Shown here: one piece after another, positions 6,792 to 48,678 of the stretch | How the letters are laid out: every line of letters begins with the position of its first letter | Numbering within the stretch: the first letter of the stretch is position 1 | From: a virus | Strand: one strand, 5' to 3' | Virus record (IMG/VR): IMGVR_UViG_3300031740_000002 | Coordinates: 1 to 55,701 of that record | Length of the DNA: 55,701 nt | Position numbers and translations under genes: made by a program | Notes under the pieces: model-generated | The model's input: the letters and a program-made list of their open reading frames with translations, nothing else | What the model was told of the DNA's origin: nothing | Databases searched by the model: none

Positions 6792-8684
6792 TTACGGGCA
6801 GCAGGACGTCAGGTCGGCTGCGCCGGTGGTGCCGTCCGGGCAGACGTTCATCGTGTACTCGCGCACCTCGTGACCGAACCGGGCGATGAGGTGGCACTCC
6901 TCGAGCCACGCCGCGGTGAAGTCGTTGGTCTCATTCAGCGTCGAGTCACGCACCACGCCGAGGTTGAGCGCCATGCCGTTGCCGCGGGCCACGGTGCCGG
7001 CCGCGTACATGAGGCCCTTCAGAGTCGACGGATACTGGGTGATCGCGGTGGCCGCGCCGGGCTGGCCGGACGCGCGGACCTGATAATCCTGCACGAACTG
7101 CACGCGGATGCCGCGCACGTCGAACCAGCGCGCGATCTCCGAGTTCGGCACGGCCATGAAGTCGGACACGCCGGTGCGCTTGGCCAGGTCGGCACGGACC
7201 AGGCCGAGCGACCATTCCGGCAGCACCCACTCGATCACGTCCGTGTCGCACATGCCGAACTTGGCCCGGTAGTCGATCGCGGACAGCTCGGCGGTGTTGA
7301 GCACCGGAGCCGCCGCGCCGGTGCCGGTGGCCGAACATCCGGCGACCGCGGTGGACAGGTTGGCGATGCTCGCGATGTAGCGGGCGTTGCTGGCGTGGTA
7401 GTGCGCGGACATGAGCAGGCGCAGGAAGTTGCGGGTCGACTCGGGCCATGCGTTGTCGGCCAGGTTGCCAGCAGTCATGCAGATGCCGTAGCACTCCAGG
7501 CGCACGTCGCTCATGGTCGAGCAGGGCACCCGGATGCACGGCTTCGTCGGCGAACCGGTGGCGGCCAGGATGTCCGAATGCTCGGTCCACAGCCACGGCA
7601 CGGTGGCGTTGCTGAACGCCGTGTACCAGGGCAGTGCCGGACTGAACGTGTCGGCCAGGCTCGGGCTGACCGGGAAGTTGATGCCGCCGCGCTCCACGCC
7701 GAAGGTCGGCAGGTCGATCATGCCGCACTCGCCGGCGATGTTGAAGAAGTCGTAGCGGATCTGGCTCGGTGCACACCAGCCGCCCGCGGCCACCATCGTC
7801 TCGAAGGCGGAGCCGCTGGCCTTCGAGCGCAACCCCTCGATGTAGGCGTCCACCGCGTCACGCGGAGTCGTCTCATTGAAGCGGTTGGCGCCGAAGTCGT
7901 GCGCGATCGAGGCGACCTGCACGCCGCCGTAGGGCTTCTGGTGGTCGGCATCCCCGCGCAGGCGGTGGTAGGCCGCGGCACCGTCGCGGACCTGGCGACG
8001 ACTGAAGCCGTTCTGGTCGGCCATGTTGCGGGCGCGGTCCTCGACCAGATCGGTGAGCTGACGCATCTGGGAGATGCGGCCACCCATCTCGACCTGTCCG
8101 GGAAGGCCCACGCTTGCGGTCAGTGCGAGCGGCGCGGCGCCTGGATCGCTGGACAGCGCGGGCTGTGCGGTGCGCATGCTCGACAGCGACGGGTTGAGGC
8201 TGCGCCTGGGGCCGCCCACGCCGCCGGTGTCGCGCGAGCCGGTCTGGGCGCCGCCGGTCGGGCGCGCCGATGATGCGGCGATGGCCTGCGGTGTGGGCGC
8301 CGCCACGGCGGGCTGGGCAGGCTCGGCGCCGCCCGGCACAGCGTCAGCCGCGTTGCCGTCGTCGCCGGTCGTGTCGCCTTCGTCGCCTGGCTCGGTGGCC
8401 TCGGGCGGGCGCACGTCGTTGATGAGCGCCTCGAATTCGGCGTCCGTCTCGGCGATCTCGTCGGCGATCGCCTTCTCACGGCCCTTGATCGCCTTGATGG
8501 CCTTCCCGAGCCGCTGCGCCTCGGGCAGGTTCTCCGGCGTGCGGTTCTCCAGAACCACGTCCAGTTCGGCGTCGGCCTGGGTCCGCAGCTCGGCCAGCTG
8601 TTCGACGGTCAGACTCGTCAGATCAGCGGGAAGTTGGAAGGGGGCGCCCGCGTCGCCAGCGCCGCCCGTGGTGGTCTTCGGCAT
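6792..8684 (-). CDS. Major capsid protein with N-terminal scaffold arm
   Basis: 630 aa from ATG 8684, preceded by ACGGGGG. Residues 1-110 are a charged coiled-coil scaffold (TVEQLAELRTQADAEL, AIKAIKGREKAIADE). Residues 110-200 form an Ala/Pro-rich linker. The rest is an HK97-type capsid domain with VAAGGWCAPSQIRYDFF and ERGGINFPVS, near-universal in actinophage capsid N-arms, and a later NLGVVRDS/NETNDFTAAWLEE region. The protease encoded upstream probably removes the scaffold. The C-terminus has a CCP cysteine pair, suggesting disulfide links. Confidence 0.92.
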   Translation of the reverse strand: MPKTTTGGAGDAGAPFQLPADLTSLTVEQLAELRTQADAELDVVLENRTPENLPEAQRLGKAIKAIKGREKAIADEIAETDAEFEALINDVRPPEATEPGDEGDTTGDDGNAADAVPGGAEPAQPAVAAPTPQAIAASSARPTGGAQTGSRDTGGVGGPRRSLNPSLSSMRTAQPALSSDPGAAPLALTASVGLPGQVEMGGRISQMRQLTDLVEDRARNMADQNGFSRRQVRDGAAAYHRLRGDADHQKPYGGVQVASIAHDFGANRFNETTPRDAVDAYIEGLRSKASGSAFETMVAAGGWCAPSQIRYDFFNIAGECGMIDLPTFGVERGGINFPVSPSLADTFSPALPWYTAFSNATVPWLWTEHSDILAATGSPTKPCIRVPCSTMSDVRLECYGICMTAGNLADNAWPESTRNFLRLLMSAHYHASNARYIASIANLSTAVAGCSATGTGAAAPVLNTAELSAIDYRAKFGMCDTDVIEWVLPEWSLGLVRADLAKRTGVSDFMAVPNSEIARWFDVRGIRVQFVQDYQVRASGQPGAATAITQYPSTLKGLMYAAGTVARGNGMALNLGVVRDSTLNETNDFTAAWLEECHLIARFGHEVREYTMNVCPDGTTGAADLTSCCP

Positions 8685-8797
8685 GGATGCCCCCGTGGTA
8701 AGAGATGAATTCGATTCACCTTCAGCCGGTGGCACCCAGCCCAATTACGTCTTTGCGCGCCATCATAGGGTGTGGTGATCAGATTACGCCATAGACC

Positions 8798-8901: not shown

Positions 8902-9030
8902 CTACTGGGCTGCGCCGGAGTCTTCGGTACCGGTGGTTTCCGGTGGCGGCACGCTCGGATCACGGTGCGGCTCGTGACGCTGCCCGCACTGCTGGCACAT
9001 CGGCCATACGACGTCCTGAGCCTCAGCCAT
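8902..9030 (-). CDS. 42-aa protein with CxxC and PPP...SGAAQ tail
   Basis: The sequence opens MAEAQDVVWPMCQQCGQRH and ends PPPETTGTEDSGAAQ. Its ATG overlaps the protease stop by 8 nt, so it is probably translationally coupled. CQQCGQRH could bind zinc. It is a paralogue of the 29-aa gene that follows. Role unknown. Confidence 0.7.
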   Translation of the reverse strand: MAEAQDVVWPMCQQCGQRHEPHRDPSVPPPETTGTEDSGAAQ

Positions 9031-10963
9031 CGCGGCCTGCCGCCACCAGCACCTCGGCCCAGCGCACCTGCTGGGTACGCCCGGCAGCGTCGGCGATCAT
9101 GTCGAACAGATCGTCATAATCGGGCTCGGCGACGGGCTCGGGCTCCAGGAACACGATAGGCACCGATGATGCCACGATGGCATCCTCACGCACGCGCACG
9201 CTGGAGCGCACCGGAGTCGGGAAGCCCTCGGACGGCACAAGCAGGGCCGCCTTCAGCTTGCCGCCCTGCCAGTCGCCGGACAGCGCGCAGGCCATCATCC
9301 GCTCCACCGCGTCCGAGCTGATGCCGTGCAGCAGGCCGCCCGCGACCCAGGTGCCGAACTGGTTTTCACCGACGCGCACCCTGGCCGCGATGGAGCACGA
9401 GTTGTCGTAGTGCTGCACCGCCCAGGACGGATCGGCGCGGCGCGGATCGACCGGCGAGGCGTGCCCGCAGTCGAAGGTGATGTTGCCGGCGTTGATCCGG
9501 TACACGCCGCCGTCGGCGCCGGCGACCAGGCACGCCTTGTTCTGGAACTCGGAGTAGTCGATATTGCGCGGCGCGGTGGGCGCACGCAGCTGACTGCGGA
9601 AGGCCCGATGCGTCACGCCGGCCGGCGCGAGCAACCCATAGACGCGTCCATCGGCGGTGATGTTGAGCGCGCCGATCGGCGGCAGTTCGGTCGGCTCGTT
9701 GAACCAGGACTCGGGCCACACCTCGGGAATGGTGATGGTGTAGCCGGCCGCTACGACCGCAGCTGTCGGCTCCTCATCGCCACCGAGCGGGGGCGGCTCC
9801 AGGCCTGCGTCGCGCAGGTGTCCGGCGAGATGTTCGTAGACGCCGGACGCGTCGCCGGCCGGGATGGTGGTTCCGCCGCGGCCACCGTTGAGCACGCCGA
9901 TGCCGGACTGGCACGCCTTGATGTTGGCAGCGCCGGGCGTGCCATCCTCGCCGACCTCATGGTGTCCGAAGCGTCCGCCCGACTTGGGGATCTGGCCGTC
10001 GACCACCTGGGCGTCGTCGATCCAGGCGTAGAAGGCGCGGGCGGTGGCGACCGGCATGGGTGATGCGAGGCGCTTCTCCGCGGCCGGGCCGTCCCACGCT
10101 GTGTCCGTGGTGGGTGTGTCATGCGGACCGACCGCCGCGGCGACCATGCCCAGATCGATCGGCGGCGCGGCGGTGATGGGCGGCATGAACGGCGACTCGC
10201 CCAGGCAGGCGGTGGCCTCGACGAAGGCCGGCTCTGGCAGCAAGGTCAGCGAGCGCACCCGCCCACTGTGATAGACGATCTCGATGGGCTCTGCCATGTC
10301 CATGCTGGCGTCAGCCACCATGACAGAGTTACGCCGCTCGTATGGGCGTCGCCGCGCAGTGCCGGGCGGGCGGCTGCGGTCGTAGGTCGGGCCGCCACGC
10401 TTGCCGTGATCCTTCTGGTTGTGCTTGCCGGCCAGGTGGAAGTCTTCATCGTCGACCGACCCGTCGGGTCCTGCTTCGATGATCTCGTCGCCGAGCAGTT
10501 CCGGCTCTGCATAGATCAGTTCGATGTCGGTCTGGTCCATGTCGTCGGCGAGGATCGAATTGCCGCGCAGGAAGTTGCCGGCCATGAGCCGCTGCGCCTC
10601 GGCGCCGGCGGCGCCTGCGGAGTCCATGGTGCCGACCCAGCGGATCAGCGCGCCGTCGCGCCACATGGCGTCCACGCTACCGACGATGACCGCGCCGGCG
10701 TGACCCTCGGCCTCGGCGGGCTGCCACTTGAGCGCGAACGGAGTGGGTGCGAACTTCAGCGCGCCGACCTCCCAGCGCCGCCGCGGCATGCTGCCGTCCG
10801 TCACGCCCTCGATGCAGGCCACGCCGTAGCAGGGGGCGCCGGCACCGTCGGGCACGAGCACGGCAGCCATGACGCCGTCGGCGTCGTACTCGTCGTCACC
10901 GGTCAGTGCGAACTCGTCTTCGAGCACCTGCGGGTCGTCACTGGGTGGCGTTGTCGGCTGCAC
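9023..10963 (-). CDS. Prohead (capsid maturation) protease, extended
   Basis: 646 aa from GTG 10963, which follows GACGGGGGTGATCAT. The first 200 residues fit actinophage maturation proteases: the YGVACIEGVTDGSM strand, WEVGALKF, VGSVDAMWRDG and an RLMAGNFLRGNSI helix. A GKHNQKDHGKRGG insert follows, a motif often seen in phage head proteins. Next is a PSGGRF-to-AGDASGVYEHLAGHLRDAG region typical of capsid-protease fusions, then a C-terminal domain with ADGRVYGLLAPAGVTHRAF. It lies directly upstream of the capsid gene and should cleave its scaffold arm. Confidence 0.85.
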   Translation of the reverse strand: MQPTTPPSDDPQVLEDEFALTGDDEYDADGVMAAVLVPDGAGAPCYGVACIEGVTDGSMPRRRWEVGALKFAPTPFALKWQPAEAEGHAGAVIVGSVDAMWRDGALIRWVGTMDSAGAAGAEAQRLMAGNFLRGNSILADDMDQTDIELIYAEPELLGDEIIEAGPDGSVDDEDFHLAGKHNQKDHGKRGGPTYDRSRPPGTARRRPYERRNSVMVADASMDMAEPIEIVYHSGRVRSLTLLPEPAFVEATACLGESPFMPPITAAPPIDLGMVAAAVGPHDTPTTDTAWDGPAAEKRLASPMPVATARAFYAWIDDAQVVDGQIPKSGGRFGHHEVGEDGTPGAANIKACQSGIGVLNGGRGGTTIPAGDASGVYEHLAGHLRDAGLEPPPLGGDEEPTAAVVAAGYTITIPEVWPESWFNEPTELPPIGALNITADGRVYGLLAPAGVTHRAFRSQLRAPTAPRNIDYSEFQNKACLVAGADGGVYRINAGNITFDCGHASPVDPRRADPSWAVQHYDNSCSIAARVRVGENQFGTWVAGGLLHGISSDAVERMMACALSGDWQGGKLKAALLVPSEGFPTPVRSSVRVREDAIVASSVPIVFLEPEPVAEPDYDDLFDMIADAAGRTQQVRWAEVLVAAGRDG

Positions 10964-11005
10964 ATGATCACCCCCGTCAGGCCAGATCATACGCCGCCGG
11001 GTACG

Positions 11006-11045
11006 CGACAGCCGAGACCGTGAGTGGAAACAGTCTCGGCTGTCG
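11006..11045 (-). terminator. Strong hairpin upstream of the protease gene
   Basis: Perfect 13-bp stem: CGACAGCCGAGAC (11006-11018) and GTCTCGGCTGTCG (11033-11045), with a 14-nt loop. It lies between the 2H gene and the protease gene. No U-run follows, so it could attenuate transcription, mark RNA processing or stabilise the downstream protease/capsid mRNA. Confidence 0.55.
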
Positions 11046-11082
11046 ACGGTGGCCGATCCGGGCGCGGATGGACCGGCACAGT

Positions 11083-11853
11083 CTAGCGCGGCTCGCCGGC
11101 CATGCGCATTATGCAGATCTCGCCGGGCAGGTGCGCCTCCGGCGAACCGCATCTGATGCAGCCGTCTGACGGCTCGCGCAGGTCGTACTCAAAAAGGGTC
11201 GGCGACGGGGCGCAGAAGCCGCCCGCCGCGGTAGCGACGTCATCCACCGGCAACTCGTCAAGCTCTGGCGTTGCCCCTGCGTCCGACTCGGGCTCTGCAT
11301 CCGGCTCCGGCGCGGTATCGGACTGGACCGGCATGCCCAGCGGGATATCGGTGACTTCGCCAGCAAAGGCGAAGCGGAGCCGGTCGAAACGCACCGGCCC
11401 GACGCGCTGCGCCACGCTGGCGAACTGTTCGGGGACAGCCACGGACGCCTCGGCCTGGCCGACGTAGGCGAGCGTGATGTGCGGGATGAAGGGCTCGTGT
11501 TGCTCAGGCCACGCCACCAGATCAGCGCAGCCGGCCTGGACGTCGGCATGCACCTCGGCGATCTCCGGACTGTTCAGGATCAACGCCACACACGGCTCGT
11601 CACCGACCGGGTTGACCAGCGCCGCGGCGAAGGCTTCGCCCTCGACAGCCTCCCACGCTGCGGCGTACTCACGCCCCCAGGCGACCAGTGCGGCCCGTTC
11701 GTCCGACTCGATAGCCTCGCCGTCGCCGAGGTACAGCAGCGTCAGGTGCAGATCGCCGACAAGTTCGGCGCCTTCGTCGCCCAGCGCCAGGAAGTCGGCA
11801 GAGTCGGAGTCAGGGAGCAGTGCGATCATCGCTCCGGTGTGTTCGTCGGCCAT
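11083..11853 (-). CDS. 2H phosphoesterase (RNA ligase/LigT-like) with capsid-like tail motif
   Basis: 256 aa. It has two HxT motifs: HLTLLYLG near residue 36 and HITLAYVG near residue 127. Their spacing and strand context match the 2H superfamily (LigT, 2'-5' RNA ligase, cyclic phosphodiesterase). An acidic linker (TAPEPDAEPESDAG) leads to a C-terminal module with AAGGFCAPS, nearly identical to the capsid GGWCAPS motif, then CIRCG and a later Cys that may bind zinc. It starts inside the TGA of the upstream gene. It may act on RNA ends or cyclic nucleotides; its place among head genes suggests packaging with the virion, which is inference. Confidence 0.8.
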   Translation of the reverse strand: MADEHTGAMIALLPDSDSADFLALGDEGAELVGDLHLTLLYLGDGEAIESDERAALVAWGREYAAAWEAVEGEAFAAALVNPVGDEPCVALILNSPEIAEVHADVQAGCADLVAWPEQHEPFIPHITLAYVGQAEASVAVPEQFASVAQRVGPVRFDRLRFAFAGEVTDIPLGMPVQSDTAPEPDAEPESDAGATPELDELPVDDVATAAGGFCAPSPTLFEYDLREPSDGCIRCGSPEAHLPGEICIMRMAGEPR

Positions 11854-12083
11854 CAACCGCTCCGGATCTTCGTCACGTCTGCCTGATATGCCTTACGGCG
11901 CAGATGTGCAGCCAGATGGCGACGCGCCATCTTCTCGGCACGCCTGCGCCCACCGAGTACGAATCGAGAATCGTATTCAAACATGCCCTCATGCACAGTA
12001 AGCAGATAGGACCAGCGCCCGGTGCGCGCAACCGTGACGTATGGGTCAAGGTACCCGTCGTCGGCCATGAAAGCGTCAGTCAC
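11853..12083 (-). CDS. Small basic protein in head operon
   Basis: 76 aa from GTG 12083, which overlaps the stop of the upstream gene (GTGACTGA); ATG 12068 is a shorter option. One alpha/beta region (GRWSYLLTVHEGMFEYDSRF) leads to a basic helical tail (RRRAEKMARRHLAAHLRRK). No family recognised. Overlaps at both ends indicate coupled translation. Confidence 0.7.
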   Translation of the reverse strand: MTDAFMADDGYLDPYVTVARTGRWSYLLTVHEGMFEYDSRFVLGGRRRAEKMARRHLAAHLRRKAYQADVTKIRSG

Positions 12084-12303
12084 CCTCTATCACGACCCCC
12101 TCGATCACGTCAGAAGCGGCAGCCTCGATCTCGGCCTGCGCTGCGTTCTCAACTGCCTGACCGGATGGCGCGAGCAGGTACATGAACGCTGAGGCCACCA
12201 TGGCGTCGCGCGACGGCGCCGGGCCGGTCAGCCTGCCGGCCCACTGCGCCCGAGGGTCGTCCGACGTGCCGTCGAACATATTGATGCTGACCTGCTCAGC
12301 CAT
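12076..12303 (-). CDS. Small hypothetical protein in head operon
   Basis: 75 aa from ATG 12303, overlapping the upstream gene by 8 nt. Acidic C-terminal half with an Ala-rich helix (QAVENAAQAEIEAAASDV). No family recognised. Confidence 0.65.
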   Translation of the reverse strand: MAEQVSINMFDGTSDDPRAQWAGRLTGPAPSRDAMVASAFMYLLAPSGQAVENAAQAEIEAAASDVIEGVVIEGD

Positions 12304-12601
12304 CTGCGCGCACCTTCGCCTCCGGCGCCATCGCGTACTCAGGGAATTGTGCCCCGTCGTAGCGCGGTGTCCAGGTCAGACCGTTGTCCGTCGTAGAGCC
12401 GTCCGGAGCGGTGTAGGGCTGACGGTGATCGTAGCGGTTGTGCCAGATCTCGGCCGGAATGCCGAGCGGGAAGGCCTCACAGCTCGGACCCCTCATACCG
12501 ACCGCCTGCGCCGCCGAGGACAGGAACGAGCGGTAGCGCCCGCAGGACGGGGCGCACTGCGACTGCGCTCCGTCACTGATCGGCTCGGCTACCTGCGTCA
12601 T
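12296..12601 (-). CDS. Conserved small phage protein with CEAFPxGIP motif
   Basis: 101 aa. It contains QCAPSCGRYR and SCEAFPLGIPAEIW followed by YDHRQPY. This C-x-x-C-R-Y...CEAFPxGIPxxIW...DHRxPY signature is, to my memory, a recurrent small phage protein whose paired cysteines suggest metal binding. TATCAT lies 7 nt before the ATG and operator copy 12610-12624 overlaps it. Exact function unknown. Confidence 0.75.
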   Translation of the reverse strand: MTQVAEPISDGAQSQCAPSCGRYRSFLSSAAQAVGMRGPSCEAFPLGIPAEIWHNRYDHRQPYTAPDGSTTDNGLTWTPRYDGAQFPEYAMAPEAKVRADG

Positions 12602-12794: not shown

Positions 12795-15700
12795 TCAGGC
12801 GTCATAGCGTCGGCTCGCCTTCTCGAATATCAGCACACTGCGGTTAAAAATGATGTATTGCGGCGGTTCGTCGTTATTGTGCACACCCGGCGGGTATTCT
12901 GCGCCATCGTTGTGCATCGGCCCGTGAATCCTGATCCCATCGTAGCCGCGCATGGCGGCATAGAAGCTGCTGTCATATAGGGAGCGCCCATATGCCGTAT
13001 TCCTAATGCCGGTACTTCCCAGGCCGCTGAATCCAAGCGACCTCAGAAATTCGACGTGCTCAGCCTTAAGATCCTCGTAGTCGACGATCCTCGCCCTCGG
13101 GTCCAGGGCCATGCGCATCAAGCCGCCACGACCATGATCCTGCACGTCGAATCCAGGCAGCCATTCATAATTAGGAGCCGACCCCCACGGTTCGCCTTTG
13201 AAGAAGTTCGTCGACGCGAAATCACTGTCACGGTAAATCTCGGCAGTAGTCCGGCGAACGGTGGTATATACGCCATTGCCGTAGATCCCCGTGGTCATGT
13301 CCCAGTCACCGGTTCGCGTAGCCTCGGCGATCTTGCGAGCGGAGATCTGGGGAACCGAACCGGACCACTGCTGAACGCCACGCCACATCTCGGTCCAACC
13401 GGCGCGGATCGCCTTGTCAAGCTCAACCTTCGTCACGACCCGCCCGGGGGTCGACCAGCCCGGCTGCTGCCTCACCATCTCGGTCAGTACACGATCCTGT
13501 GGATCGTTGATGCTCTGAGCCAATTCGGCGCGCCGAATCCATGGCGCATCATCCTTCGTCTGTTTGGTCAGATCTGTACCCGAACTCCGCACACTGGGTG
13601 GCCCGACATCCACCCGCGTGACGCGGGCCTTGATCAGCGGGATGACCTCGCCGTCCGGCATCTGCACCGTCGCGCCACGCGTGACGATCTGCACTTGCGC
13701 CCCGGCAGGAATGTCGATGTCGCCAAAGCCTTCCATCGTGTCCGGATCAAACTTGACCTTCGCGCCGGCCTTCCCGATCGGCTTGATGCCCGCTTTCGTG
13801 CTGGCGCGCGTGATCGCGCTGCGCAGCTTCGCCGCGTCCCCGGTCGCGAACGCCTTCGCCAGGATGTCCACCACGGACTCGTCGACACCGGCGTAGAACT
13901 CGCCGGACCGGCGCAGGGCGGGCGAGAACACCTGACTGATGGTCTGACGGGTGGCGCCCTTGGCGATGATCTCGTCGAGCTCGGCGATCAGCCTGGCGTT
14001 GGCCGCAGCCGTCTCGATCTGGCGGTTGCGCTCGCGCTGAGCGGTGCGGCTCAAGCGCCTGCGGTAGTCGGTGGCCTCATCGGATGTAAGCGACTCGACC
14101 ACGTTCTTACTGATCAAGCGCGGCTGGCCACCCACGATCGTCTCGTAGCCGGGGCGCACCACGCGCACGAGCTGACCGGACGCCAGACGCTCGCCGGCGA
14201 TACCCTGCGCCAGTTTCGAGTCGTAGCCGGCCACATCGCCGGCCGTACCGAGCTCGCGCAACCCGGCAGCCTTCGCACGCTTACCCAGCGCCTCGCCGAG
14301 CTTGCCCGGACCGCCGGTGCGGATGGCCCGGATCAGCGCATCGCGCTGGGCGTTGGTCACATCGTAGCGGGCAGCGTTGGACCGGATCACCGCAGCGATG
14401 GCGTCGCGGTCGCCCTCGGTGTCGACCACGGCCTGGATGACGCGCGCGTTGAAGTCTGCGATCTTGCGTCGCTCGTCGATGATCGCCTGGTCTATGCGGC
14501 CCTCGATCAGGTCGACGTCAGCGCCGGGCGAGTCGCCGATCAAGCGTACGAGATCATTCTTCGTGGCGCGTGGCGGCACCTCGATGCCACGCTGACGCGC
14601 GATGGTGCGCAACTCTGCGACAGGACGAGCAGCCAGCGCGCCAATCGGATTGGCCCGCGCCGGCGAGACAGTGCTGGTCGGCGTGAGCCGCAGCCTGAAC
14701 CCGGCAGCGCGGTATTCGGCCTCGAGCAGATCGTAGATCTCGTGCGAGATCGCCGAGGCGCGGTCGCCGCGCAGCATCACATCGGCGAAGGCCTCGGCTA
14801 CGAGCTCATGCGCGTCCGAGCCGGCGTAGGTGCTGATGTCACGCGCCACCAGCGTATCGGCGTCGATGCCCTCCAAGGTGGCGCGCCGGTTGACCGCGGT
14901 CAGCGCCCGCGATTCGATGCGCGCACCCAGGTTGTCGATGTCGAGGATGTGGCCGAACTCGTGCAACCCGACGGCCATCGGCTGCCCGCCCTCGCGGGTG
15001 AACCAGCCGGAGCGGCCCTGCTCCCAACCCTTGTTATCCGAGCGCAGCCGGCGCAGCAGCGCACCGCGCTGGTCCTGGGTAGCCCAGGACGCGTTGAAGC
15101 GGATAGCCAGGCCGCCCGCGTTGGCGTAGTCACCGCCGGGTACGCGGAACCAGCCGATCTCGTAGACGCGCACCTCGGGGAAGCGCTCGAAACCGCGCAG
15201 TACGCCCTCGGCGTACTCGCGCCAGGTGACCAGCGAGCCGTCATCGGGGATCACCACCATGACGTCGCGGCCGGTGATGCGCCGGTACTCCTGGCGCACC
15301 GCGGCCTGCAGACCCTTGGTCGTCTTGGCGCGCAGCAGCACGGCGCGGATCGGATTGGCCACCCGCGCGCCGCGGGCCAACAGCGACAGGTCAGGGCTGG
15401 GCTCGGCCAGCGGGTCAGGGCCTGGGGCAGCGGCGGAGCGGCCGGGCACGGTTGGTGGTGCGCCGAAGCGGCCGGTGTTGGGTCGCAGTACTTCGCCAGG
15501 GACGCCAGGACCGATATCGCGCGCCTGCCCCTGGGCGCGGTCTATCTCGTCGTCGTCGATGACGTAGCCGATGGTGCAGCGGCACCGGTAGCGCTCGGAC
15601 GGTGGAAGACTGGAGTCGCCGGGCACGTCGGCCGAATAGCCGCCGACGGTGAATTGATCGACAAGATCGACGCGCTGGCCATCCGCCGCGAGGTGGGTCG

Positions 15701-16388
15701 GGCGCGTCCGCGGATCCATGGTGGCGATCCACTCTTTGAGCATGGACAGCCCGGACGCCCGCGCGGTCTGGATCGAGCCGACGTTGGATGCCTCGATGAC
15801 CTGGGTGCGGGCCAGCAGCACGGCGGATTTCGCCGTCATGTCGGCGGAGTCGCGCAGGCGCTGGGTCAACTGCGGCACCGACTCGCCACGCTCGAAGCCG
15901 TCGAGCAGTTCGTTACGTGCCGTCTCCCAGAGGTCGTTGCCCACCTCGACGAAGGTGTTGCGGGCCTGAGCCATGAACTGCTCGGCCGCGATACTGCCGA
16001 CGCTGGGCAGCCCGGTCACGCCGGTGGCCGTGATCATCTGCGAGTAGGTGGTGCCGGTCGAGTCGCCCCAGACCTGGGCCACCACGGGCATCAGCTGCGT
16101 ATCGACGGCGCCGGTCCACAGCGGCGTAATACCGGCCAGGTCGTCGGGTGAGACGAACGGCTGACCGGGCATGAGGCCGTCCCCGCCCGGTACCGATGAG
16201 GCGGGCGGCTGCTCGGCCGCCACCATGGCCATGGCCGGCTCTGGCGCGAACGCTGCGGCCGGCGCCGCTTCCTCGATGCGGCGCGCGATGATGTCCATGA
16301 CGTGGTTCAGGGCGGCGCGCATGGCGGCCTCGGCCTGCTCCTCGTAGGTCGTCAGCGCCGCGTCGCTCAGACCGGTGATGCGCCGCAC
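12795..16388 (-). CDS. Giant MuF head protein with metallopeptidase-like and ADP-ribosyltransferase-like domains
   Basis: 1197 aa, far longer than a plain MuF protein (about 250-400). Residues about 120-275 are the MuF head-morphogenesis domain: LARTQVIEASNVG, then MDPRTRPTHLAADGQ and the RYRCRCTIGYV end. Residues about 400-560 contain GLHEFGHILDID (HExxH zinc site near 476) and, downstream, HELVAEAFADVML, a zincin-like layout. Near residues 596-620 is a SAP/Rho-N-like helix pair (ELRTIARQRGIEVPP). Residues about 1000-1180 fit an ADP-ribosyltransferase fold: MWRGV, GIYGNGVYTT, then PPQYIIFN at the end. The expected final acidic residue reads Q, so activity is uncertain. DNA for the last domain is visibly richer in A/T, suggesting transfer. 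It follows the portal gene by 6 bp. It is probably a virion protein injected with DNA. Confidence 0.85.
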   Translation of the reverse strand: MRRITGLSDAALTTYEEQAEAAMRAALNHVMDIIARRIEEAAPAAAFAPEPAMAMVAAEQPPASSVPGGDGLMPGQPFVSPDDLAGITPLWTGAVDTQLMPVVAQVWGDSTGTTYSQMITATGVTGLPSVGSIAAEQFMAQARNTFVEVGNDLWETARNELLDGFERGESVPQLTQRLRDSADMTAKSAVLLARTQVIEASNVGSIQTARASGLSMLKEWIATMDPRTRPTHLAADGQRVDLVDQFTVGGYSADVPGDSSLPPSERYRCRCTIGYVIDDDEIDRAQGQARDIGPGVPGEVLRPNTGRFGAPPTVPGRSAAAPGPDPLAEPSPDLSLLARGARVANPIRAVLLRAKTTKGLQAAVRQEYRRITGRDVMVVIPDDGSLVTWREYAEGVLRGFERFPEVRVYEIGWFRVPGGDYANAGGLAIRFNASWATQDQRGALLRRLRSDNKGWEQGRSGWFTREGGQPMAVGLHEFGHILDIDNLGARIESRALTAVNRRATLEGIDADTLVARDISTYAGSDAHELVAEAFADVMLRGDRASAISHEIYDLLEAEYRAAGFRLRLTPTSTVSPARANPIGALAARPVAELRTIARQRGIEVPPRATKNDLVRLIGDSPGADVDLIEGRIDQAIIDERRKIADFNARVIQAVVDTEGDRDAIAAVIRSNAARYDVTNAQRDALIRAIRTGGPGKLGEALGKRAKAAGLRELGTAGDVAGYDSKLAQGIAGERLASGQLVRVVRPGYETIVGGQPRLISKNVVESLTSDEATDYRRRLSRTAQRERNRQIETAAANARLIAELDEIIAKGATRQTISQVFSPALRRSGEFYAGVDESVVDILAKAFATGDAAKLRSAITRASTKAGIKPIGKAGAKVKFDPDTMEGFGDIDIPAGAQVQIVTRGATVQMPDGEVIPLIKARVTRVDVGPPSVRSSGTDLTKQTKDDAPWIRRAELAQSINDPQDRVLTEMVRQQPGWSTPGRVVTKVELDKAIRAGWTEMWRGVQQWSGSVPQISARKIAEATRTGDWDMTTGIYGNGVYTTVRRTTAEIYRDSDFASTNFFKGEPWGSAPNYEWLPGFDVQDHGRGGLMRMALDPRARIVDYEDLKAEHVEFLRSLGFSGLGSTGIRNTAYGRSLYDSSFYAAMRGYDGIRIHGPMHNDGAEYPPGVHNNDEPPQYIIFNRSVLIFEKASRRYDA

Positions 16389-16394
16389 GGGCGG

Positions 16395-17975
16395 CTACCG
16401 GTGCGTCGAACCGTTGACGTGCCCGTTGCCGACACGGCTGAGCGCACGTCCCAGCGCCCCGGCCGATGCGACCAGTGCGGGCGGCGCAGGCCGCGGCGGC
16501 GTACCGCCCGGCTGTGGCGGTGGTTCGGCGCGGGTGTCCGGCATGGTGCGTGGGCTACCGACGGAGGGTGCCGGAGCGTCCGGTGCCACGGTCGGACCGG
16601 CACCCTCCGTCGGAGTCATGGCGGGCTGCCCGGTCAGCTCGGAGATCGCAGCAGGGATGAGCTCGGCAACGCCCTTGACGATGATCCGCTTGTTGGCCCA
16701 GGTCTCGATCTCGTCGGGATCGGTGAGCGCGTCGGACTCGTCGAAGCCGGCCTCGCGACGGTAGGCGGTTTCGTTGATCACGCCGTCGGCGTACATGGCG
16801 CCGGCGCGCTCGGCCATGTCCGGCTTCGCGCTCAACTCGGTGGTGTCGTACCAGGCGATCAGTCGACCGCCCTGCGCGCCGACCAGCGGTAGGCCTTCCT
16901 GGCGCAGGGCACGCACGAGGTAGGCCTTTGTGACCGCGCCGCAGATGACCTCGGCGAGCGGCGCGAAGCACAGCCGGATCTCCTCCTCGGAGATCTGCCA
17001 GGCGTTCCAGTGATTCTGCTCGCCCATGCCGCCAGTGACCCGGTTGCGGTCGATGCCCAGCGTGTCGCCCAGGCGCCCCAACTCGTCGAGACGCTCTTTG
17101 AGCAGCCACTCGTCCAGCGGGTCGTCGGGCTTGAGCAGCTTCCACTTCTCGATCAGCTTCTCGGTGAAGCGGATCGGGATGGGGAAGCCGGCGCTGGCCA
17201 GGCCGGGGTTCTTGATGTTGCGTGACCCGATGTCCATGAGCATCGCGATGAACGGGTCCGGCGCCTGCTTGTACTGGTCGGGCACGCCGATGGTGCCCTC
17301 TGCGGGGATGAGCAGAAAGCCGTTCATGACCAGGCGGCTGACCATCATGGCCACGATGCGCGAGTCGATCAGGAAGATACGGCGCATGATCGGGATGGCG
17401 GCCTGCGCGTTACTGGTGGCAAGCCACGGCCATTGCGGGTCGGGCTGATAGATGCGGATAGGCAGGTTGTCCGGAGCCAGGTCGCGCCAGGTCGCCTCAC
17501 CGACGCGCACCTTGTACGTGTAGCCGACCGGCCAGATGCAGTTGGTCGAGTAGACGCCCCAGTCGGCCTGAGAGAGCGGAATGCGCGGGTCGTCGCGTTC
17601 GGCGATCAGCCAGCCGTCGCCGGGGATGGTGAGCTGCGGCGTGATGGCGCGAAGAAACGCGGAGTGTCCGGGCGGCCCACCGCAGAACTCCTGCATCAGC
17701 TCGGCTGCCGGACCGTCGGTGAGCATCTCAGGCTCGTCGGCGCCGGGCACCACCTCGGCCGCGCCGAGCCTGATCCGCGACATGGCGCGAGCCTGCCAGT
17801 CGGTGGCCTCGAAGAACTCGCCGAGCGTGCGCCGGAAGGCCCAAGCCTCATCCTGCCAGGGCTGGTAGCCGAAGATCTGGGCGTTCTGGAACTGCTGCGG
17901 CGTGTAGGTGGCGCTGGCCGCTACGAGCGGTCGCTGTGCCACGGCCAACGAACGGGACGGCAGGCTGTCCGGCAT
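16395..17975 (-). CDS. Portal protein
   Basis: 526 aa from ATG 17975, preceded by CACGGGGGTGAG. Typical siphovirus portal: an N-terminal AQIFGYQPWQDEAWAF segment, WQARAMSRIRLGAAEVVPG, wing and stem with VAMMVSRLVMNGFLLIP, a KERLDELGRLGDTLGIDRN helix, and a Pro-rich C-terminal tail. It forms the dodecameric DNA channel at the head vertex. Its place between terminase and MuF genes agrees. Confidence 0.92.
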   Translation of the reverse strand: MPDSLPSRSLAVAQRPLVAASATYTPQQFQNAQIFGYQPWQDEAWAFRRTLGEFFEATDWQARAMSRIRLGAAEVVPGADEPEMLTDGPAAELMQEFCGGPPGHSAFLRAITPQLTIPGDGWLIAERDDPRIPLSQADWGVYSTNCIWPVGYTYKVRVGEATWRDLAPDNLPIRIYQPDPQWPWLATSNAQAAIPIMRRIFLIDSRIVAMMVSRLVMNGFLLIPAEGTIGVPDQYKQAPDPFIAMLMDIGSRNIKNPGLASAGFPIPIRFTEKLIEKWKLLKPDDPLDEWLLKERLDELGRLGDTLGIDRNRVTGGMGEQNHWNAWQISEEEIRLCFAPLAEVICGAVTKAYLVRALRQEGLPLVGAQGGRLIAWYDTTELSAKPDMAERAGAMYADGVINETAYRREAGFDESDALTDPDEIETWANKRIIVKGVAELIPAAISELTGQPAMTPTEGAGPTVAPDAPAPSVGSPRTMPDTRAEPPPQPGGTPPRPAPPALVASAGALGRALSRVGNGHVNGSTHR

Positions 17976-18038
17976 GCTCACCCCCGTGATCGGCCGTTGT
18001 CGCCATGGTAGACCGTGATCGACCAAAGGGGCAGACAG

Positions 18039-31122: not shown

Positions 31123-31306
31123 CGGTCCACGCACCGCGCAGGAATGGCTGGAGCACTTCGCAGCGCAGGAAGCCGCGGCGCATGCTCGTACCATGGCCGC
31201 GGCTCTGCTGGCGGTGTTCCTGGCCTTCCCCGCCTCGGAGGTGCTGACGTCGCCCGGTCGTCCTGGCCTAGTCGGCGATCAGCACCGAGCCGGTGGCCAG
31301 GGCTGA
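31112..31306 (+). CDS. Small putative membrane protein
   Basis: 64 aa whose ATG overlaps the end of the methylase gene. Helical N-terminus and one hydrophobic helix (MAAALLAVFLAFPASEVL). It overlaps the end of the convergent gene by 39 nt, which weakens the call. Confidence 0.45.
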   Translation: MSSDGPRTAQEWLEHFAAQEAAAHARTMAAALLAVFLAFPASEVLTSPGRPGLVGDQHRAGGQG

Positions 31307-32176
31307 GCGGATCGCGTCGACCACCACGAAGTAGGTGTCATTGCGGCTGGCCCAGCGGGCTTCGTCGCCGGCGAAGTTGTCGAACATGGCCATCCGGATG
31401 CCCTTCTCGAATTCGGCCTGGACGCCCTGGCCGCTGACGCAGTCATTCGTGATCGAGGTGGGCTCGGTGCCGGCGATGCTCTTGCCGTTGGCGTCGAGGT
31501 CGGCGATGACCGCGGCAAAGCCTGACGGCATGCCCGTGAGCGCGTTCAGGGCCGCGATGACGCGATCGCGCATCAGGATGTCCAGACCGCCGACGTGGAC
31601 CTTCATACCCACGCCTGGCGCGCCGTGCACGGCGACCACGCGCATCGCACGTCGGCCTGCCCAGCGGCAGATCGGCTCGTCGAAGTTGACCGAGGTGATG
31701 TGCAGTTGGGCGTTGCCGCCCGCGGGCATGACGCCCTTGAATTCGTAGAAATCCCACAGCGCTCCGGGCATCTCCACGCCGGCGATGCCCGCACCGATCG
31801 CCGCCGTGCCCAACTCGATGCCGCCGCTGTGCGGCGCCTCGACCAGCACGTCCGTGCCGGTGCGGTGCAGCGTGATGGTGAAGGCCCCAGTCGGGTGGGC
31901 CGCCTTCAGTGCGGCGAAGTTCGGGTAAACGTCAGACATGGCCTTTACAGCATCCTTAGCTAGTTGTTCGATCTTCTCGTCATAGCCGGAATCGTGGAAC
32001 TCCCAGCCGTCATTGGCCGCTTCGTCGTCAAGCCACTCCGCGTCAAGGCCGTATAGATCACCAAATTTACGCGCCGCATCGGTGACGATGCCCGGATCTC
32101 CGGGCACGCCTCCCGCGTAGTACCAGTACGGTCCATTTGCGGATGCAAACTCACTACTTGTCTGCCCACGCCCCAT
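31268..32176 (-). CDS. Poly-gamma-glutamate hydrolase family protein with extra N-terminal domain
   Basis: 302 aa from ATG 32176, sharing its A with the TAA before it. From residue about 80 it follows the gamma-PGA hydrolase (YjqB/PF05908) pattern: VYPNFAALKAAHPTG, EAPHSGGIELGT, FYEFKG, LHITSVNFDEP, VAVHGAPG, HVGGLD and a GQGVQAEFEKG end. The Zn-binding His and Glu are present. These enzymes cut capsular poly-gamma-glutamate. The first 80 residues (PYWYYAGGVPGD, EKIEQLAKDAVKA) are an added domain in DNA of lower G+C. ATG 31939 would give the bare enzyme domain. Confidence 0.85.
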   Translation of the reverse strand: MGRGQTSSEFASANGPYWYYAGGVPGDPGIVTDAARKFGDLYGLDAEWLDDEAANDGWEFHDSGYDEKIEQLAKDAVKAMSDVYPNFAALKAAHPTGAFTITLHRTGTDVLVEAPHSGGIELGTAAIGAGIAGVEMPGALWDFYEFKGVMPAGGNAQLHITSVNFDEPICRWAGRRAMRVVAVHGAPGVGMKVHVGGLDILMRDRVIAALNALTGMPSGFAAVIADLDANGKSIAGTEPTSITNDCVSGQGVQAEFEKGIRMAMFDNFAGDEARWASRNDTYFVVVDAIRSALATGSVLIAD

Positions 32177-32412
32177 TACGCGGCGCACCAGCACCGGTCG
32201 AACTCGTACACGCCGCCGGTCTGGACATCCTCGCAGTCGACCTGATCGTCCGGCCCGACCAGGACCGTGTCCTGGCGCGGCGCATCGCTCCTGAACTCCG
32301 CACGGTAGCTGCGGACCATGTCGCAGGCGGACATCGGTGCCACCTGCGTACCGGCGATGAGGCTGCCCAGAGCGATCCCCAGCGCAATGCCGGTCGGTAG
32401 TGGGCGCCTCAT
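32176..32412 (-). CDS. Small exported protein
   Basis: 78 aa. Signal peptide GIALGIALGSLIAGTQV, then a short mature part with five Cys, ending CWCAA. It overlaps its neighbours by 1-4 nt, so it is co-translated with the poly-gamma-glutamate hydrolase gene. No family recognised. Confidence 0.7.
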   Translation of the reverse strand: MRRPLPTGIALGIALGSLIAGTQVAPMSACDMVRSYRAEFRSDAPRQDTVLVGPDDQVDCEDVQTGGVYEFDRCWCAA

Positions 32413-45050: not shown

Positions 45051-46163
45051 TCAGCGACGTAGGTACGATGCCGTCCTGATCTTAACCTGTCGCTGGATCT
45101 TCACCGCGTCCGTCCAAGCCTCGATCCACCGCCAGGCGTTGCCCTCGACCGTGTAGTCCGCCGCGGCCTGCCGGCCGGCCTGCGTCTGCTCGGCGCGCAG
45201 GTCGTCGTCGTCGAGCAGAGTCTTGGCGCGCTGGTACCACTGCCGCGGGTTGTTGGCCAGGAACCCGACGCCGGTCGTCCGCGCCAGCTCCGCGTATTCG
45301 GCGCGCGGGGAGGCCACCCAGGGCACTCCGCAGGCCATCGCCTCCAGCGGCTTGAGCCACGACTTGGCTGTGTTGAAAACGGTGTCGGCCAGCGGCGCCA
45401 GGACGACACCCATGTTGGCGACCTTGCGCGGATAGTCGTCGAAGTCGGTATTGCCGGCGGTGTCCAGGTCGTCCTCATCAACGGTCATGCCGAAGGCCCG
45501 GTGAAGCATGCCGTCGCCGGGCGCATAACCGTAGTTCGGCCCGACGCCCCAGTACTTGTAGCCCTCCCGGATCAGCCTGGCCACGGCCGCCCCGAGCACC
45601 GGCAGATCGCTCGGGTGCGAGTGGATCGAGCCGGGCCAGCCGAAGGTCGCCCGGTCCACATGCTCGATACCCAGGTAGCCGCGCGGGACGGTGTTGCGCA
45701 CCACTACGCCGCGCCCATGCGGTGCGTAGGTCTTGAGCAGCGCCGGCGTGGAGACGGTAACCATGGTGGCGTCCAGACAGGCCTGGACAGCGTTCTCCCA
45801 GTTGTGCTGCACCACGCCCATGTCTTTGCGCATCGCGACCCAGGCCGGATTGGACGGGTCGATGCGGGCAAGATCGTCGTCCATGTCGACGATGACGGCC
45901 ACCCCCTGATCGCGCAGCAGGGGAATGCCCGAGGCCAGGTTGAGCATCGAGACACGCTGCAACACGATCGCCTCGGCGTCGGGCGGCACGAAGGCCGATA
46001 CGGCGCGGTTGGTGCGTAGGTCGATGTCCCCGCCGATGCCCTGCCGCGAACCGGGCATGACAATCTTGACGTCGTGGCCCTGCGCCGCGGCGGCCGCGGC
46101 CGGCCAGATCATCCGGTAGTGCCCGCAGCCGTACTTGTCGGCGGGGTAGACATAGATCGTCAC
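45051..46163 (-). CDS. Glycosyltransferase, GT-B (group 1) type
   Basis: 370 aa from GTG 46163, which overlaps the stop of the small membrane gene. GT-B layout: N-domain with GCGHYRMIWPA and VIVDMDDDLARI, C-domain with VVLAPLADTVFNTAKSWLK, then PLEAMACGVPWVAS (donor-binding E). It transfers sugars, perhaps to virion proteins or cell wall polymers. Confidence 0.85.
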   Translation of the reverse strand: MTIYVYPADKYGCGHYRMIWPAAAAAAQGHDVKIVMPGSRQGIGGDIDLRTNRAVSAFVPPDAEAIVLQRVSMLNLASGIPLLRDQGVAVIVDMDDDLARIDPSNPAWVAMRKDMGVVQHNWENAVQACLDATMVTVSTPALLKTYAPHGRGVVVRNTVPRGYLGIEHVDRATFGWPGSIHSHPSDLPVLGAAVARLIREGYKYWGVGPNYGYAPGDGMLHRAFGMTVDEDDLDTAGNTDFDDYPRKVANMGVVLAPLADTVFNTAKSWLKPLEAMACGVPWVASPRAEYAELARTTGVGFLANNPRQWYQRAKTLLDDDDLRAEQTQAGRQAAADYTVEGNAWRWIEAWTDAVKIQRQVKIRTASYLRR

Positions 46164-47035: not shown

Positions 47036-47815
47036 TCATGAGCCGTGCGCGCGCAGCTCCCACCATTTCGACCAGGGCAGGTCGTAGTTGATGCGTAGCG
47101 GCTTGAGCATGGCGCCGTTGCCGTTGGTCGCCCACGGCTCGGCTGCTGCGTGCATCAGCACGGGCAGGCTGACCTGATCCTGGTGCGACCACGTCAGGTT
47201 GTGATGCCACCACTCAGCACCCAGGGCGAACGTGGCCACGCTGTGGCGGCGTACGCAGTGCCCGGTGGCCATGAGGCCCCAATGCTCCGGATGCTTCCAC
47301 TCGTCGCGGTAGTGGGCGACCTGACGCAGCAGGGCGGCGCGGTCGTAGCGCGGCAAAGTCGAGGAGTACACACCTTCGTCCAGCGCGCAGTCACGCCACG
47401 GGTGGCGCACCATGGACCAGTCGTCCCCGCCCAGAGCGTCGAGGTTGCGCTTGACGAACTGGCCGACCGTGACGCTCATGTTGGCGTCGAGCCAGATGCT
47501 GGCGACGTCGTAGCGCGCGGAGTGCCGCACGCCGGCGAAGTAGGCGGCCATGTTCGGGTGGCACTTCCACCACTTGTGTCTAAGCATCGGCAGCGTGATG
47601 AGCGGGTCACCGTTGGCAGGGTTGGGCTGGATGTGATCGTCAGGCTCGGCCAGGATGACCTGCCAGCCGCGGCCAACCTGCAGATCGACGTCATCGGTGA
47701 ACACGAAGGCCGGCGCATCGATGTCGCCGGGCAGGTCGGTCACCCGCGCCTCGTAGCCGCCGTAGACGGCGGTGTAGATCATGACCTTCTCGATGGGCAG
47801 CGCCGGCCACTTCAT
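47036..47815 (-). CDS. DUF616-like glycosyltransferase
   Basis: 259 aa. KVMIYTAVYGGYEA, FVFTDDVDLQ, then MLRHKWWKCHPN and SIWLDANMSV match the DUF616 (TOD1/MUCI70-like) layout. It overlaps the epimerase gene by 4 nt. Confidence 0.75.
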   Translation of the reverse strand: MKWPALPIEKVMIYTAVYGGYEARVTDLPGDIDAPAFVFTDDVDLQVGRGWQVILAEPDDHIQPNPANGDPLITLPMLRHKWWKCHPNMAAYFAGVRHSARYDVASIWLDANMSVTVGQFVKRNLDALGGDDWSMVRHPWRDCALDEGVYSSTLPRYDRAALLRQVAHYRDEWKHPEHWGLMATGHCVRRHSVATFALGAEWWHHNLTWSHQDQVSLPVLMHAAAEPWATNGNGAMLKPLRINYDLPWSKWWELRAHGS

Positions 47816-48678
47816 CCCAGAGCCAACGACTCGTAGGACCGGGCAGCCTCGGCGATCAGGCCGGCGTCAAACTGTGGGCGCCAGCCCAGCAGCGCCCAGC
47901 CCTCGCCGTCGGCGCAGACGGTGGACTCGACCTCGCCGTCGCGCATCGGCAGATAGTCGATGTCGGGCTGGAACCAACCGGTCGCCTTCGCCACCAGATG
48001 GGCCACGTGGAGCACGCTCACGGCCTGACCTGTGCCGCCGTCGAAAACCAGATTGGCCCTCGCGCCGGCCTTGACGTTGTCCGGCGTTATCCAACCGCGG
48101 GCGTGCGGGATCGCGTCGATGAGCATGCGCGCGATGTCGTCGACATGGATCATGTCGACGGTCTGGTAGCCGGTGCCCCAGATCGGCAGCGGCTGACGGC
48201 GCCAGGCGTGCACGGCGAAGGTCGGCAGGATCTTCTGGGGATGCCCGACGCCGAAGCGCTGGCCCGGACCGTAGGCGTTGAAGGCGCGTACGTGGGCCAT
48301 CCGCAGCCCGCGCGAGTGGTGCAGCGCGTCGGCCAGCCGCTTGGCCGCGATCTTCGTCGCGGTGTAGATCGACGGGAACACGTCGGGCATCAGGATGCCG
48401 ATGTAGACCGCGTCGTTTCGCACGCACCACTGCATGACGTTGAGCGCGCCCAGGACGTTGACCTCGACGGCCTTCATTGCGTCGTCGAACAGTTCGGCCG
48501 TACCGAGCACGCCGGCCAGATGGATGACGGCGTCGGCGCCCTTCAGACCGGACAGATCGCCCATGATGTTGCCGCCGGTGTCGCGGTCCACCGACCAGGC
48601 GGTGTGTCCGCGGGCCTGCGCCGCGGCGATGGTGGCCGCACCGATGAAGCCCGCGCCGCCCGTGACTGCGATATGCAT
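47812..48678 (-). CDS. NAD-dependent epimerase/dehydratase (extended SDR)
   Basis: 288 aa. The Rossmann start VTGGAGFIGAA binds NAD(P). IYTATKIAAKRLAD gives the catalytic Tyr-x3-Lys. AFNAYGPGQRFG and later DMIHVDDIARM are family hallmarks (GDP/UDP-sugar epimerase group). It supplies or edits the nucleotide sugar used by the neighbouring transferases. Confidence 0.9.
   Translation of the reverse strand: MHIAVTGGAGFIGAATIAAAQARGHTAWSVDRDTGGNIMGDLSGLKGADAVIHLAGVLGTAELFDDAMKAVEVNVLGALNVMQWCVRNDAVYIGILMPDVFPSIYTATKIAAKRLADALHHSRGLRMAHVRAFNAYGPGQRFGVGHPQKILPTFAVHAWRRQPLPIWGTGYQTVDMIHVDDIARMLIDAIPHARGWITPDNVKAGARANLVFDGGTGQAVSVLHVAHLVAKATGWFQPDIDYLPMRDGEVESTVCADGEGWALLGWRPQFDAGLIAEAARSYESLALG

What the first reader, a model, noticed from the sequence alone, without database searches (positions are those of the whole stretch)
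12795..16388. MuF protein carrying metallopeptidase-like and ADP-ribosyltransferase-like domains
A 1197-aa head protein combines a MuF domain, HEFGH...HELVAEAF zincin-like region, a SAP-like helix pair and a C-terminal ART-like fold with MWRGV and GNGVYTT. MuF proteins with C-terminal toxin domains are known as a polymorphic toxin class. A protease plus ART in one virion protein would be an injected effector with its own processing enzyme. The ART part is in A/T-richer DNA, as if acquired.
Basis: partly seen in the sequence, partly recalled or inferred. Interest (0 to 1): 0.78.

Follow-up and report, generated by a model that had tools for sequence, protein, structure and literature searches.

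The report
Phage head protein with interchangeable effectors
A virus of bacteria carries in its head a long multi-tool protein, with a protease-like domain, two copies of a domain related to the chaperone cofactor GrpE, and a swappable enzyme-like tail (here an ADP-ribosyltransferase fold), which is probably injected with the DNA and suggests that phages may recruit host chaperones for their injected weapons.

Summary
The zincin keeps His476, Glu477, His480, Tyr521 and Glu528 in 14/14 relatives; its model resembles PPEP-3 and lethal-factor-type peptidases. The C-terminus folds as an ART of a family absent from Pfam: Arg1003 27/27, Y-x10-[YF] in 26/27, but the usual catalytic Glu is Gln here (Gln 10, Glu 6 of 27). 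Elsewhere this ART is fused to portal, MuF or minor-capsid proteins, which argues for head delivery. Its DNA has the lowest G+C of the window.

The missed repeats are GrpE-like (hhalign 96%, E 1e-9; best of 40 column-shuffle controls 0.07). In 16 related proteins from uncultured phages a GrpE-like copy always precedes the last effector, while that effector varies among seven types on a syntenic backbone. MuF toxins, MuF-ART fusions and zincin processing were already proposed; a GrpE-like domain in such a protein I did not find reported. Likely an injected, self-processed polyvalent effector; DnaK recruitment, cleavage and ADP-ribosylation are unproven.

The parts
12795..16388 (-). MuF polyvalent head protein, 1197 aa, GTG start at 16388
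15540..16148 (-). MuF domain and N-terminal flank (residues 81-283)
   Evidence: Pfam PF04233 E 7.4e-18 over residues 158-273; PHROG head morphogenesis E 2.8e-36; family HMM
14688..15353 (-). gluzincin (PPEP/lethal-factor-like) domain, residues 346-567
   Evidence: conserved family A3/A7; model pLDDT 86.5; Foldseek PPEP-3 prob 1.00 and lethal-factor-type peptidases
14949..14963 (-). HEFGH (His476, Glu477, His480)
   Evidence: invariant in 14/14 aligned proteins
14787..14828 (-). YAGSDAHELVAEAF: Tyr521 and Glu528, spacing Y-x6-E
   Evidence: Tyr and Glu invariant in 14/14; spacing as in PPEP-1 and lethal factor (own knowledge)
14529..14642 (-). SAP/HeH DNA-binding-like domain, residues 583-620
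   Evidence: HeH E 0.05 / Rho_N E 0.03 in the window protein; E 1e-13 in L002; found in 16/16 proteins of the family
14082..14501 (-). GrpE-like module 1, residues 630-769
   Evidence: repeat homologous to module 2; model
13611..14063 (-). GrpE-like module 2, residues 776-926
   Evidence: hhalign vs GrpE prob 96.4, E 1e-9; profile hits canonical GrpE genes; Foldseek GrpE hits
12810..13511 (-). C-terminal ADP-ribosyltransferase-fold domain, residues 960-1193
   Evidence: model pLDDT 81, pTM 0.83; Foldseek ART-fold hits; family of 27
13374..13388 (-). MWRGV with Arg1003
   Evidence: Arg 27/27
13227..13280 (-). GNGVYTTVRRTTAEIYRD: Y-x10-Y (Tyr1041, Tyr1052)
   Evidence: Tyr1041 26/27, aromatic at 1052 27/27
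12840..12860 (-). QYIIFNR: Gln1177 at the ART glutamate position; Asn1182-Arg1183 invariant
16395..18026 (-). portal protein gene directly upstream
   Evidence: phrog_776 E 4.7e-89
12296..12601 (-). 101-aa downstream gene conserved in 14 of 15 module-bearing relatives whatever their effector
11083..11856 (-). 2H phosphoesterase (LigT-like), same gene block
   Evidence: PF02834 E 8.3e-8
6792..8744 (-). major capsid protein, same gene block
   Evidence: phrog_777 E 1e-118

Best explanation
This is a polyvalent MuF-type virion protein. The MuF domain places a few copies inside the head at the portal (established for the family, inferred here). On infection the chain is threaded out with the DNA into the host (inferred). 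The GrpE-like modules, which sit beside the effector domains, engage the host DnaK system so that the unfolded chain is caught and refolds (inferred). The built-in gluzincin cuts the chain itself or host proteins (inferred), the SAP/HeH domain keeps it on phage DNA (inferred), and the terminal effector acts on the host (inferred). In this phage that effector is an ART-fold domain acquired recently; sister phages carry other effectors on the same backbone (shown by alignment).
For: Architecture and repeats. Zincin: residues invariant 14/14, structural neighbours PPEP-3 (prob 1.00) and lethal-factor-type peptidases. ART fold; a profile built from 27 phage sequences matched only two PDB sequences, both ADP-ribosylating toxins (E 0.012 and 0.39). 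Head delivery: ART relatives fused to MuF (L087, L099), Phage_min_cap2 (L089) and portal proteins (L088, L092, L093, L094, L101). GrpE homology: hhalign prob 96.4, E 1e-9, score 63 against at most 16.9 in 40 column shuffles; actinobacterial GrpE genes found with the module profile; GrpE structures among Foldseek hits. Module swapping: seven effector classes after the last GrpE-like copy in 16 proteins, with terminase, portal and capsid genes 58-69% identical in the MuF-type relatives. Acquisition: lowest G+C.
Against: No experiment. Position 1177 is Gln and not conserved in the family, so transferase activity is uncertain. The GrpE-like modules do not reach the Pfam GrpE cut-off (one copy E 0.084), lack the long GrpE coiled coil, and DnaK contact residues were not tested. 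One copy also matches a structural head protein family, XM1 gp53 (E 3.4e-4), so a purely structural role is possible. Foldseek E-values against the PDB are weak (none below 1e-3).
Confidence: 0.55

Rival explanations
1. Same injected protease-plus-ART protein, but the GrpE-like repeats are only structural spacers or head-packing domains and never touch DnaK.
For: Helical bundle plus beta domain repeated 1-3 times; one copy matches XM1 gp53 minor capsid (E 3.4e-4); GrpE-like wing domains also occur in other actinobacterial proteins of unknown role (L148-L155).
Against: The homology signal is specific to GrpE and a copy directly precedes the last effector in 16/16 proteins.
Confidence: 0.35
2. 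The C-terminal domain is an ART fold without transferase activity: it binds NAD+ or a related nucleotide, or only binds a target.
For: The ART glutamate position is Gln in the window and Q, E, H, W, R, S and others elsewhere; other residues (Arg1003, GYD, Asn1182-Arg1183) are the invariant ones.
Against: Arg and Y-x10-Y are kept; the HY-[EDQ] clade of ARTs tolerates Gln (PMC9503650).
Confidence: 0.3
3. A polymorphic toxin for competition between bacteria, carried by lysogens with an immunity gene (the MuF-toxin model of PMC5576092).
For: Variable C-terminal effectors on a constant N-terminus.
Against: No tyrosine integrase or serine recombinase in the window (which may be a fragment); the downstream gene is conserved whatever the effector, so it is not an effector-specific immunity gene; the module had no relative in the genome-contig scan.
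Confidence: 0.06

Closest known systems
MuF polymorphic toxins of temperate phages (Jamet et al. 2017, PMC5576092)
   Same: MuF domain with variable C-terminal toxin; about 20% of the putative MuF toxins there carry a metallopeptidase and 14% are putative ARTs
   Different: Here several effectors in one chain, tandem GrpE-like modules, no integrase and no effector-specific downstream gene found
Polyvalent proteins (Iyer et al. 2017, PMC5512222)
   Same: Injected multidomain proteins with lethal-factor-like zincins proposed to process the chain, ARTs, Rho-N/SAP HEH and kinase domains
   Different: GrpE is not mentioned in that paper's main text; this protein is anchored by MuF and its C-terminal effector is swapped behind a GrpE-like repeat
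MuF-VIP2 fusions of Microbacterium phages (PMC7302621) and MuF-Alt/VIP2 or N4-ART fusions (PMC9503650)
   Same: ART fused to a MuF head protein
   Different: Different ART family: no match to PF03496; Arg and Y-x10-Y pattern with variable Glu/Gln. VIP2-like ARTs occur as separate modules in sister proteins. Relation to the N4-ART family was not tested
PPEP / anthrax lethal-factor-type gluzincins
   Same: Fold neighbourhood, HExxH, catalytic Tyr seven residues before the Glu ligand
   Different: No Pfam family match; inside a phage head protein
GrpE nucleotide exchange factor
   Same: Last helices plus beta-wing domain with the FDPxxxE...G...V pattern; homologous by profile comparison
   Different: No long N-terminal coiled coil; below the PF01025 cut-off; tandem copies inside a virion protein

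Membership tests
MuF domain proteins (PF04233) | Sequence match above the curated cut-off | tested here: met
   65.8 bits against cut-off 29.6
MuF domain proteins (PF04233) | Gene next to portal in the head operon | tested here: met
   portal gene ends 6 nt upstream; synteny in relatives
MuF domain proteins (PF04233) | Present in the virion | not testable with these tools
   needs virion proteomics
MuF polymorphic toxins | Constant N-terminus with interchangeable C-terminal effectors | tested here: met
   seven C-terminal classes in 16 proteins
MuF polymorphic toxins | Temperate phage / prophage context | tested here: inconclusive
   no PF00589 or PF00239 match in a possibly incomplete record; module not found in genome contigs
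MuF polymorphic toxins | Effector-specific immunity gene | tested here: inconclusive
   the downstream 101-aa gene is conserved whatever the effector; two further small ORFs (12076-12303, 11853-12083) have no match in the loci compared
ADP-ribosyltransferase superfamily | ART fold | tested here: met
   model pTM 0.83; neighbours PARP1/2, tankyrase, ParT, MbcT; BFVD ART-PolyVal E 5.5e-4
ADP-ribosyltransferase superfamily | R-S-E or H-Y-[EDQ] catalytic signature | tested here: inconclusive
   Arg1003 27/27, Tyr1041 26/27, third position Gln 10, Glu 6, other 11 of 27
VIP2/Alt ARTs (PF03496) | Match to the family model | tested here: not met
   no hit for the window protein, while L002 and L004 hit with other modules
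PPEP / lethal-factor-like gluzincins | HExxH, third ligand Glu and Tyr at -7 | tested here: met
   invariant 14/14; Foldseek PPEP-3 prob 1.00
PPEP / lethal-factor-like gluzincins | Zinc-dependent proteolysis | not testable with these tools
   needs an enzyme assay
GrpE (PF01025) | Match above the Pfam cut-off | tested here: not met
   no match in the window at E <= 10; best single copy E 0.084
GrpE (PF01025) | Homology of the C-terminal half (helices plus beta wing) | tested here: met
   hhalign prob 96.4, E 1e-9, with shuffle, reversed and unrelated controls negative; GrpE genes hit by profile
GrpE (PF01025) | DnaK binding and nucleotide exchange | not testable with these tools
   needs biochemistry
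Polyvalent proteins (PMC5512222) | Several injected-effector domains with a zincin in one chain encoded among head genes | tested here: met

The most novel reading that the evidence does not exclude
Phage heads carry their own DnaK nucleotide-exchange (GrpE-like) modules, fused next to the effectors, which recruit the host Hsp70 system at the moment of injection to pull in and refold an unfolded multi-effector chain; the same backbone accepts interchangeable effector cassettes.
Probability: 0.3. Interest if true: 0.82.

Novelty: new variant of a known kind. Interest (0 to 1): 0.62.

Why it matters
How large folded proteins in phage heads get through a narrow tail and become active in the host is an open question. 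A conserved GrpE-like module placed beside every swappable effector makes a direct, testable proposal: host DnaK does the refolding and the phage brings the cofactor. The family also shows a head-borne effector system with cassette exchange on an otherwise stable backbone, and an ART family that is fused to portal and MuF proteins across many phages.

Tried and rejected
Alignment of mixed zincin and module fragments (A6) misaligned the domains and was dropped for colinear rows (A7). Single-sequence searches of PDB, Pfam and cultured phages with the C-terminus found nothing. The weak Pfam hits of the modules to NfeD, EAD1 and others were judged chance because GrpE alone survives profile-profile controls. 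Profile searches of the modules against PDB sequences gave only unrelated weak hits, so the GrpE link rests on profile-profile comparison, genome searches and fold comparison. The genome-contig scan with the module found no relative. The immunity-gene reading of the downstream ORF was rejected. 'Kinase', 'GNAT', 'papain-like' and 'DUF3626-like' labels of sister C-termini: only the kinase label has a significant Pfam match (PF00454); papain (PF15644 E 0.007) and DUF3626 (E 0.042) are weak, and GNAT is a reading of the sequence only.

Full report
What is there. The window is an uncultured IMG/VR virus record with a head-gene block on the minus strand: terminase, portal (16395-18026), the MuF gene (16388-12795), a 101-aa gene, a 2H phosphoesterase, a 709-aa head protein and the major capsid protein. 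The finding's gene is real but on the minus strand; it encodes 1197 aa from a GTG six bases after the portal gene.

Domains. MuF is significant (PF04233 E 7e-18). Residues 346-567 form a zincin domain shared with many uncultured phages. In the 14 colinear proteins aligned, His476, Glu477, His480, Tyr521 and Glu528 never vary. The spacing Tyr-x6-Glu is that of PPEP-1 (Tyr178/Glu185) and lethal factor (Tyr728/Glu735; own knowledge). The model (pLDDT 86.5) has PPEP-3 as best PDB neighbour (probability 1.00), followed by lethal-factor-type peptidases. The SAP/HeH pair is weak in the window protein but strong in relatives.

C-terminal ART. A first search found no relatives in cultured phages, but relatives in L061, L073 and L065 led to a family of 26 viral loci and four bacterial loci, one of them in an Actinoplanes genome between portal-like and MuF-like genes. 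The model of residues 958-1197 has pTM 0.83. The best 50 PDB matches are almost all ART folds (PARP1/2, tankyrase, ParT, MbcT); the top one is a cyanophage A4 pre-ejectosome protein; none is below E 1e-3. Against predicted viral proteins 27 matches are below 1e-3, including ART-PolyVal. The family profile matches just two PDB sequences, both ADP-ribosylating toxins (E 0.012 and 0.39). Arg1003, Tyr1041 (26/27), an aromatic residue at 1052, Gly1148, Asp1150, Asn1182 and Arg1183 are conserved; the classical Glu position is Gln here and Gln 10, Glu 6, other 11 of 27. The literature describes an HY-[EDQ] clade (PMC9503650), so Gln does not exclude activity, but activity is unproven. Proteins that end in this ART begin with MuF (L087, L099), Phage_min_cap2 (L089) or portal domains (L088, L092, L093, L094, L101), which is good evidence that it travels in the head.

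Residues 630-769 and 776-926 are two copies of a repeat of helices plus a beta domain. The repeat is homologous to the C-terminal half of GrpE: hhalign of 29 phage copies against 12 GrpE sequences gives probability 96.4 and E 1e-9, score 63, against at most 16.9 in 40 column-shuffled controls, 11.5 reversed and about 15 for unrelated alignments (also 100-102). A profile of the repeat, run over 395 actinobacterial genomes, picks out canonical grpE genes among its best matches, and the model's Foldseek list contains human GrpEL1, Thermus GrpE and M. tuberculosis GrpE. The repeat is still below the Pfam GrpE cut-off, so it is called GrpE-like, not GrpE.

Modular family. Sixteen proteins share the order MuF or VG15 - zincin (15 of 16 by the HMM) - SAP - variable modules - GrpE-like - effector. 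A GrpE-like copy is always the last domain before the C-terminal effector, which is kinase-like (5), GNAT-like (3), papain-like (2), a second zincin (2), DUF3626-like (2), VIP2 ART (1) or the new ART (1, the window). Not all of these labels are significant matches. Homology of the window protein to L002, L003 and L005 stops near residue 926-944, while terminase, portal and capsid of the MuF-type relatives are 58-69% identical. The ART DNA has the lowest G+C of the window (0.576). Together this is cassette exchange at the C-terminus. The gene downstream is conserved whatever the effector, so it is not an effector-specific immunity gene, and no integrase was found, although the record may be incomplete.

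How it probably works. MuF proteins sit in the head at the portal and may be ejected with DNA (literature). A 1197-aa chain would have to unfold to pass a tail. GrpE-like modules beside each effector would let it use host DnaK on arrival; the zincin would separate the parts, as proposed for polyvalent proteins (PMC5512222); the SAP/HeH domain would hold it near DNA; the terminal effector would modify the host. Shown here: domains, conservation, homology, swapping, fusion partners. Inferred: packaging, ejection, DnaK recruitment, cleavage, enzyme activity.

Known or new. MuF toxins with peptidase or ART domains (PMC5576092), MuF-VIP2 fusions (PMC7302621), MuF-ART and 2H-MuF fusions (PMC9503650) and zincin processing (PMC5512222) are known. 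A GrpE-like domain in a MuF or polyvalent protein was not mentioned in PMC5512222 or PMC9503650 nor found by paper searches; the library is open-access only. I rate it a new variant of a known kind.

Noticed in passing
window 12296-12601 (-): 101-aa gene directly after the MuF gene, conserved (38-55% identity) in 14 of 15 module-bearing relatives regardless of effector; possible functional partner of the GrpE-like MuF proteins.
   Followed up: partly
L063, L072, L075: Tandem or neighbouring arrays of the same zincin domain (up to four in one 962-aa frame), an expansion of the zincin in related phages.
   Followed up: partly
L066:41-6064: Intein-like insertion inside the MuF/VG15-type head gene (PF14890 E 0.0017, below cut-off).
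   Followed up: no
window 9023-11152 (-); L065, L073: Motif of the type HPGHxQKSHGRKGG / KHNQKDHGKRGG occurs before solo ART and zincin proteins of relatives and in a head protein of the window; perhaps a packaging or cleavage signal.
   Followed up: no
L088, L092, L093, L094, L101: The same ART family fused to the C-terminal side of portal proteins of several types.
   Followed up: partly
PDB 9k3a chain B (cyanophage A4 pre-ejectosome), hit of window residues 958-1197: Best structural match of the window's ART domain; an ejection protein with an ART-like region may be present there.
   Followed up: no
window 31268-32194, 45051-46163, 47812-48678 (-): Poly-gamma-glutamate hydrolase-like, glycosyltransferase and nucleotide-sugar epimerase genes.
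   Followed up: no
L148-L155 (actinobacterial genomes): Proteins ending in a GrpE-wing-like domain behind other domains, in a context unrelated to phage heads; role unknown.
   Followed up: no
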